Assembly: GCF_016278385.1 (NCBI RefSeq)
Contig: NZ_JADQBY010000025.1
Coordinates: 1-34,441, forward strand
Length of the DNA stretch: 34,441 nt
Reading direction: 5' to 3'
From: Methanolobus sp.
GTDB taxonomy: Archaea; Halobacteriota; Methanosarcinia; Methanosarcinales; Methanosarcinaceae
Of this stretch, positions 16,859-34,441 are shown in pieces. The notes beneath the pieces were generated by a model. That model saw nothing but the letters and a program-made list of their open reading frames with translations. It made no database searches and was not told where the DNA came from. How positions within the stretch are numbered: the stretch's first letter is position 1; each line of letters opens with the position of its first letter. Position numbers and translations under genes: made by a program.

Positions 16859-17262
16859 GGTTCTGTAGAAACCCTTATTTGAATGGCTTATGCAATTGTG
16901 CATAAATGTTATGGTTGGGAACTATCAATTTTGTGGGAAACATCGCGGCTTTTAATTACCAGTATTCAGAAACAGAGTTAAAGACAACAGATTGTTTTAT
17001 TAATCTTATCTGATCGTGCCGGCTTCACCGGATTCTCTTGGATGGTTTTATTTATTCATGACTTACGAGTAGTCAAACATATTGTCCCCTGCGCCTTCGT
17101 GTTTCTGATAGCTTTACAAAAAATCATTGACAAACAAAGAACTATGCTATCAACCGCCGCAGGAGGCACGTTCTTTTGCTATCGTTCTGAACACTACTGA
17201 AATAATGCAGTTATTGAAAATTGCTGAGTTAAAGTTGGAATTTGCAGGATTTCTACAGAGCC
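16859..17262. mobile_element. 404-bp MITE-like element with terminal inverted repeats
   Basis: The left end GGTTCTGTAGAAACCCT (16859-16875) and the reversed right end GGCTCTGTAGAAATCCT (17262-17246) match at 15 of 17 positions. A subterminal hairpin TTATGCA/TGCATAA lies at 16888-16905. The flanks share AAAT (16854-16857 and 17264-17267), a possible short target duplication if one extra base is allowed at each end. No transposase frame is visible inside, so it is either a non-autonomous element or an IS with a deleted core. The first 26 bases of its left end match the end of the IS1-like relic at 33949-33974 in 23 positions, suggesting mobilisation by that family. This element fills the otherwise gene-free 16796-17287. 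Confidence 0.7.
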
Positions 17263-32784: not shown

Positions 32785-33666
32785 GTGGTACTCATACTAA
32801 GAAGTATACCCCGAATAGTGTACAAAGGATATGAACGCCTGCTTATGCAGGAAGTTCAAAGTGAAGTAATCCCACAGCACATAGCCATCATCATGGACGG
32901 AAACCGCAGGTATGCGCGTAAGCTGGGGCAAATTACGTCTTTTGGGCACAGTAAGGGCGCAGATGTCACTGAGAATGTAATGGAATGGGCTTGCGAACTT
33001 GGAGTAGAACACCTTACGATTTACGCATTTTCAACTGAGAATTTTAACAGGTCCAACGACGAGAAGGATAAGCTCTTTGATCTTATCAAACTCAAATTTG
33101 ATGAGATAGTCGTAGACGAAAGGACGCATGAAAGAAAGATGCGAGTCCATGCAATAGGAGATATTGAAAAATTACCTGAATCTCTTCGTGAATCGATAAA
33201 GAACGTAGAACTTGTGACATCAATATATGACAAATTCAATCTCAATGTTGCAATTGCATACGGTGGCAGGCAGGAGATAGTCCTGGCAGTCAGGGAAATA
33301 GCTGCCAAAGTTGAATCAGGAGAACTGGAACCGGAGGATATCAATGAAGAGACAATATCCAGCCACCTGTATCCCTCAGGAGCTGCTGCACTGCCTGATG
33401 TAGACCTTATTATACGCACAGGTGGTGATGAGAGGGTATCCAACTTTTTACCCTGGCAGGCTAACGGAAGCGAGTGCGCAGCATATTTCTGTGCGCCATT
33501 CTGGCCTGAGTTCCGCAAAATAGATTTTCTCCGCTCTATACGTATCTACCAGTCACGCATGAGAGAAAGACATCAGCATACAACCGCTCGTGCCGCACAC
33601 TTTTTAAAAGTCCTTGGAAAAGTTGAGATAGAGGAAGTCAAGCACTATTCCAAAGAGAGGATATGA
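32785..33666 (+). CDS. uppS: Polyprenyl diphosphate synthase (cis-prenyltransferase)
   Basis: Builds the long-chain cis-polyprenyl diphosphate that becomes the dolichol-type carrier for N-glycan and S-layer assembly in archaea. 293 residues. Catalytic-Asp motif [15 protein letters not shown] (D38), then [25 protein letters not shown], and the diphosphate-binding [19 protein letters not shown]. The length exceeds bacterial UppS by about 40, mostly at the N-terminus ([19 protein letters not shown]), as usual in methanogens. The start is uncertain: GTG 32785 has no ribosome binding site, while GGGAGTG (32781-32787) would fit a start about 6 nt further on, where only CTC and ATA are found; ATG 32845 would trim 20 residues. 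A small hairpin ATGATC/GATCAT overlaps the stop. Confidence 0.92.
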
Positions 33667-33674
33667 TCCCCCGA

Positions 33675-33974
33675 TCATGTTTCTATCTCCCTGTTACCAA
33701 AAGAACAGTCGATGAACTTTATCCCATCTCTATCAACAGCAATCCAGATCCAGCGATATTTTTTTTGATCCCTGTATAAGTGCGTATCTCATCTAATCAA
33801 CGAAAAATGATTAATCCAGAGTATTACGGACCATAAAAAACACAATATAGTAAAGAAATCAGGGCAAAAGTGTACTGGAATCAAGCAAAATAAGTTAGAT
33901 AAGTTATTAGTGCATAACCTTGACAAATATGCCAAGGTTATCTTAATTATTCAAATAAGGATTTCTACAAAGCC
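33675..33974 (-). mobile_element. Relic of an IS1-like insertion sequence with one terminal repeat
   Basis: Minus-strand frame 33678-33788 encodes YRDQKKYRWIWIAVDRDGIK and then FIDCSFGNRE; W-x-WIA-x-DR-D followed by F-x(3)-G-x-R is the DDE core of IS1-type transposases. It is bounded by TGA on both sides and lacks the N-terminal zinc-finger half. At the other end, the reversed sequence of 33974-33949 begins GGCTTTGTAGAAATCC and matches the left end of the 404-bp element at 16859 in 23 of 26 bases. Just inside is a perfect inverted repeat ATAACCTTG/CAAGGTTAT (33914-33941). The opposite end is not seen, so the copy is truncated near the uppS stop. It occupies most of 33667-34003, where no intact gene occurs. 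Confidence 0.65.
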
Positions 33975-34003
33975 AATACCCGAGTTAATTCTTTCAGAAA
34001 AAG

Positions 34004-34386: not shown

Positions 34387-34441
34387 TGGTGCGGGAGGTG
34401 TGATTCGAACACACGAACTCCTACGAGACTAGGCCCTCAAC
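34387..34441 (-). tRNA. tRNA-Leu (anticodon GAG), 3' part, cut by window end
   Basis: Read on the minus strand from the window edge: G, loop TTGAGGG (anticodon GAG), stem CCTAG, long variable arm TCTCGTAGGAGTTC, T arm with GTTCGAATC, acceptor strand CTCCCGC, discriminator A and encoded CCA (34387-34389). The 5' half lies beyond the window. Variable arm and acceptor strand are the same as in the tRNA-Leu at 17288-17375. Confidence 0.9.

What the first reader, a model, noticed from the sequence alone, without database searches (positions are those of the whole stretch)
16859..17262. 404-bp MITE whose ends match an IS1-like relic 17 kb away
Terminal repeats pair 15 of 17, a subterminal hairpin is present, flanks share AAAT, and the left 26 bases match the IS relic end at 33949-33974 at 23 positions. 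Both ends have a hairpin just inside the terminal repeat. This suggests a non-autonomous family mobilised by an IS1-type transposase in this genome, and the element lies 25 bp from a tRNA gene.
Basis: seen in the sequence. Interest (0 to 1): 0.6.

Follow-up and report, generated by a model that had tools for sequence, protein, structure and literature searches.

The report
Worn-out MITE of an IS5-type element
The 404-base stretch is a decayed copy of a short non-coding jumping DNA, repeated through the methanogen genus Methanolobus and most likely moved by the transposase of an IS5-family element (not IS1); it is a new member of a known kind.

Summary
The sequence observation holds. The 404-bp element has terminal repeats pairing 15/17, a left subterminal hairpin, a left end matching 33949-33974 at 23/26, and lies 25 bp from a tRNA-Leu gene. 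MITE is the right class; IS1 is the wrong partner. The relic is two relics side by side. Bases 33837-33974, which include the matching end, are the 3' end of an IS5-family transposase gene (84% identical to L145). The IS1-type fragment (33675-33803) is on the other strand. Intact ~1.0-kb elements with these ends (236-301-aa frames, NCBIfam transpos_IS5_2) occur in congeners with perfect 8-bp target duplications. In the window's own genome, eight sampled contig ends stop about 54 bases inside these ends, as expected of an unassembled multi-copy IS. The 404-bp family is found in 19 of 60 genomes searched, all in one genus (Methanolobus, through G016 = M. profundi). Copies with both ends show, as a group, an 8-bp duplication and no other length. 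The window copy has lost its duplication and its three GC-rich hairpin stems are broken, so it is probably dead. Unexplained: two GC-rich palindromes conserved above the rest of the family, carried in opposite order by a sister family.

The parts
16859..17262 (+). 404-bp MITE copy, decayed
   Evidence: TIR 15/17; copies in 18 congeneric genomes besides its own
16859..16875 (+). left terminal inverted repeat
   Evidence: same as the left (transposase 3') end of the IS5-type element
17246..17262 (-). right terminal inverted repeat, 16/16 to GGCTCTGTAGAAATCC
16859..16931 (+). left 73 bp, 71-73% identical to the left end of IS5-type copies L139, L143, L144
   Evidence: E 1e-4 to 7e-8
16888..16905 (.). 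subterminal hairpin TTATGCA-ATTG-TGCATAA
17016..17044 (+). GC-rich palindrome module A, both stems broken in this copy
17150..17174 (+). GC-rich palindrome module B, stem broken in this copy
33837..33974 (+). relic 1: 3' end of an IS5-family transposase gene plus IS end (84% identical to L145, 81% to the intact IS in L133)
33675..33803 (-). relic 2: fragment of an IS1-type (PF03400-like) transposase gene, 84% identical to L083
17288..17375 (-). tRNA-Leu (CAG), neighbour

Best explanation
Bases 16859-17262 are an old, decayed copy of a genus-wide non-autonomous transposable element (MITE). Its terminal repeats, and about 70 bp of its left end, are those of a ~1.0-kb IS5-family insertion sequence with a DDE_Tnp_1 transposase that is multi-copy in the same genome. 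Inferred mechanism: the IS5-type transposase supplied in trans binds the ends GGCTCTGTAGAAAWCC, moves the element and leaves an 8-bp target duplication. This copy inserted between a tRNA-Leu gene and a gene that looks like an FMN reductase (named from its sequence, not tested) and has since degraded. Shown: shared ends, multi-copy family, 8-bp duplication at family level, no family copy at the tRNA-Leu site in the congeners where that site was recovered. Inferred: mobilisation by the IS5-type transposase, and immobility of this copy.
For: TIR and IS-end match. 19 of 60 genomes (own included) hit at E<=1e-5, all in the genus, several copies full-length at 401-405 bp. Full-length IS of 1000-1055 bp with these ends; five copies with perfect 8-bp TSDs (L134, L139, L144, L155, L160). 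NF033579 transpos_IS5_2 at 227.6 bits. Paired flanks of 12 two-ended copies match at 4.83/8 against 3.07 shuffled (0 of 20000 shuffles); no other length from 4 to 10 gets below p=0.05. Own-genome contig ends stop 53-55 bp inside the left IS end (4 sampled) or the right IS end (4 sampled). A 131-132-bp MITE family in the same genome has perfect 8-bp TSDs in 3 of 7 copies. The family model hits none of the tRNA-Leu/argF loci fetched from the 26 congeners.
Against: The window copy has no 8-bp TSD (3/8). Beyond its ends the interior has no similarity to the IS. The core is 73% identical on average between copies, so recent mobility of the 404-bp family is not shown. The right end shares little beyond the 17-bp repeat with the IS. 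The 12 copies in the TSD test were chosen by recognisable ends and may not all be independent by descent.
Confidence: 0.88

Rival explanations
1. MITE mobilised by an IS1-family transposase.
For: An IS1-type transposase fragment lies 33 bp from the relic that owns the matching end; IS1 elements also make 8-9-bp duplications (general knowledge).
Against: The matching end is contiguous with the 3' end of an IS5-family transposase gene in intact elements. Both IS1-type transposase loci in the genome lack such ends within 1.5 kb at <=3 mismatches.
Confidence: 0.04
2. Conserved structured RNA or cis-regulatory element that happens to have terminal repeats; palindromes A and B are its functional core.
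For: The best 10-column blocks of the palindromes are 93-95% conserved while the core averages 73% pairwise identity. Copies are retained at orthologous sites in several species.
Against: No Rfam match. Almost no compensatory pair changes in the stems; most changes break pairs. Modules broken in the window copy. No copy at this site in congeners. The 8-bp duplication supports transposition.
Confidence: 0.06
3. Relic of a longer element with its own transposase, or a degraded gene, that lies by chance between IS ends.
For: An open stretch of about 70 codons in one frame of the consensus.
Against: Full-length copies in several genomes keep 401-405 bp; copies differ by single-base gaps and all frames have stops.
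Confidence: 0.02

Closest known systems
IS5-derived MITEs of Methanosarcinaceae (partners ISMma12, ISMac15, ISMba19, ISMbu10; PMC3852290 Table 4)
   Same: Short, non-coding, 15-17-bp terminal repeats shared with an IS5-family partner, in related methanogens.
   Different: Those are 140-252 bp with listed duplications of 0-3 bp; this family is about 404 bp, shows 8-bp duplications and carries two GC-rich palindromes. Not compared by sequence here.
IS5 family, NCBIfam NF033579 transpos_IS5_2
   Same: The autonomous partner's transposase scores 227.6 bits against a cut-off of 140.
   Different: The 404-bp element encodes no transposase. The 8-bp duplication recalls the ISH1 subgroup, from memory and untested.
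IS1 family
   Same: An IS1-type transposase fragment lies near the relic end.
   Different: It does not own the matching end.
REP/REPIN palindromic repeats (PMC3116915)
   Same: GC-rich palindromes of about 20-30 bp dispersed in the genome.
   Different: Here they sit inside ~400-bp elements bounded by IS5-type ends with 8-bp duplications; no REP-associated transposase was sought.

Membership tests
MITE | short, no transposase gene | tested here: met
   404 bp; stops in all frames, longest stretch without a stop 72 codons
MITE | terminal inverted repeats shared with an autonomous IS | tested here: met
MITE | dispersed in multiple copies | tested here: met
   3 places in own genome at E<=1e-5; up to 11 matches in a genome, where only 11 candidates were scored; more module hits by pattern
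MITE | target duplication of the partner's length | tested here: met
   Family level: 8 bp, 0 of 20000 shuffles reach the observed agreement; the window copy itself has only 3/8
MITE | empty site in a relative | tested here: inconclusive
   No copy at the tRNA-Leu site of congeners; two (G009, G018) keep the reductase-like gene next to the tRNA, but the spacer is too divergent to align
IS5 family (partner) | IS5-type DDE transposase | tested here: met
   NF033579 above cut-off; PF01609
IS5 family (partner) | ~1-kb element with terminal repeats and a fixed duplication | tested here: met
   1000-1055 bp, 8-bp TSD perfect in five copies
IS5 family (partner) | moves the 404-bp element in trans | not testable with these tools
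   needs a transposition assay

The most novel reading that the evidence does not exclude
The two GC-rich palindromes are a functional cargo (a DNA-binding or RNA-processing module) that has been carried in either order by two MITE families and is retained by selection at fixed sites in Methanolobus.
Probability: 0.1. Interest if true: 0.55.

Novelty: new member of a known kind. Interest (0 to 1): 0.3.

Why it matters
It adds a sizeable, apparently undescribed MITE family, with its likely IS5-type partner, to a methanogen genus, and corrects the assignment from IS1 to IS5. The conserved palindromes in swapped order in two MITE families are a modest open question that expression data could settle.

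Tried and rejected
IS1 as owner of the ends: rejected. Coding interior: rejected. Known RNA family: none. Covariation in the palindrome stems: almost none. Plasmid, phage and viral collections: no match. Papers on Methanolobus MITEs: none found in the open library. A glycosyltransferase ORF near IS ends on C9 looked like cargo, but the two ends are in the same orientation, so it was dropped.

Full report
Setting. The window is contig C33 (34,441 bases) of a 2.88-Mb draft genome in 52 contigs. The genus is identified as Methanolobus through its congener G016: its contig C7 is 1,112,953 bases long, the length of Methanolobus profundi contig NZ_FOUJ01000001.1. This is an inference from contig lengths.

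Observation. All stated features were found: terminal repeats 15/17, left hairpin, 23/26 match to 33949-33974 (next best in the window 17/26), and 25 bp to tRNA-Leu. The end motif occurs 51 times in the genome with up to one mismatch, against 1 for the reversed pattern. The shared AAAT in the flanks is not the family's target duplication.

The relic is two relics. Aligning 33650-33990 to fetched elements gave 33837-33974 as the 3' end of an IS5-type transposase gene with its IS end (84% to L145, 81% to the intact copy in L133), on the plus strand, and 33675-33803 as an IS1-type transposase fragment (84% to L083), on the minus strand. The two IS1-type loci of this genome have no GGCTCTGTAGAAATCC-like end within the flanks held, at up to three mismatches.

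The partner. A transposase fragment abutting such an end at C22:50769 was used to search the genus; 23 of 27 genomes matched. Full-length elements are about 1,000 bp, with reading frames of 236 to 301 aa counted from the first methionine, and end in GGCTCTGTAGAAATCC / GGCTCTGTAGAAAACC. Five have perfect 8-bp duplications: ATATTTTC, GTTTTTTT, TGTCATTA, AAAGAATC, GGATTTCG (the last, L160, is a decayed copy with one mismatch in one end). L151, a 1200-bp copy, shows a 9-base match. Other copies show none, as expected of old or recombined insertions. The 301-aa protein is PF01609 and NCBIfam transpos_IS5_2 above cut-off. No intact copy was found in the assembled contigs of the window's genome, but four sampled contig ends stop inside the left IS end and four inside the right one, 53-55 bases in, with near-identical sequence. 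I read this as at least four collapsed copies.

The 404-bp family. In the own genome three places match at E<=1e-5; across 60 genomes 19 match, the own genome included, all in the genus. At most 11 candidates per genome were scored there, so counts are lower bounds. Most copies with both ends measure 401-405 bp in a long form and about 316-330 bp in a short form. The left end is IS-like for about 22-30 bp in most copies tested and for about 70 bp in L001 and L113. Paired flanks of the 12 copies with both ends recognisable agree at 4.83 of 8 positions against 3.07 when shuffled (0 of 20000), and no other length from 4 to 10 reaches p<0.05. The duplication length therefore equals that of the IS5-type element.

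The site. The region around this tRNA-Leu or its argF neighbour was fetched from 26 congeners, and the family model hit none of these loci except the window's own. In a few congeners the tRNA lies apart from argF and was not in the flank held (1.5 kb or less), so the absence covers the sites recovered. In G009 and G018 the reductase-like gene still stands next to the tRNA, about 146-150 bp away, without the element; the spacers do not align, so the exact empty site is not defined.

Interior. Two palindrome modules stand out: A (GTGCCGGCTTCGCCGGACCCTCCGGGATG) and B (CCATCCGCCGCAGGCGGCACGTTCC). Their best 10-column blocks are 93-95% conserved against a mean pairwise identity of 73% over the core. 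In 45-50 copies, changes in stem 1 of A and in B mostly break pairs; only the second A stem shows alternative standard pairs, at two or three of its pairs (gapless windows, so copies with an inserted base are out of register there). Sequence, more than pairing, is what is conserved. In the window copy all three stems are broken. A second family in G001, G007 and G024, probably also G025, carries B before A between similar ends. Some copies stay at orthologous positions in two to four species. Whether this reflects selection on copies or only on the source elements is not decided.

Literature. IS5-derived MITEs are described in Methanosarcina and Methanococcoides species (PMC3852290); none was found for Methanolobus in the open library. 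The finding is a new family of a known kind.

Noticed in passing
G000 C17:39819-39950, C21:31915-32045, C47:16684-16815, C22:51118-51249, also C18, C20, C49: A 131-132-bp MITE family with the same ends; three copies with perfect 8-bp duplications (GTAGTTAA, CAATTATT, AATATTTG); the C22 copy sits inside an IS5-type relic.
   Followed up: partly
L207-L215, L220, L221 (G001, G007, G024, G025): A second MITE family carrying the same two GC-rich palindromes in the opposite order (B then A).
   Followed up: partly
L051 190/209, 2985/3002, 4432/4452; L054 1763/1783: Paralogous ATP-grasp-like genes (named from sequence, untested) each followed 17-20 bp after the stop by an IS5-type end motif.
   Followed up: no
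window 34390-34441: The contig ends inside a second tRNA-Leu-like gene; contig C23 begins with a 56-base match to the later part of such a gene, so C33 and C23 may be neighbours.
   Followed up: no
L087, L090, L103, L120: A 404-family copy at the same position, at the 3' end of an ABC-transporter-like gene (named from sequence), in four species.
   Followed up: partly
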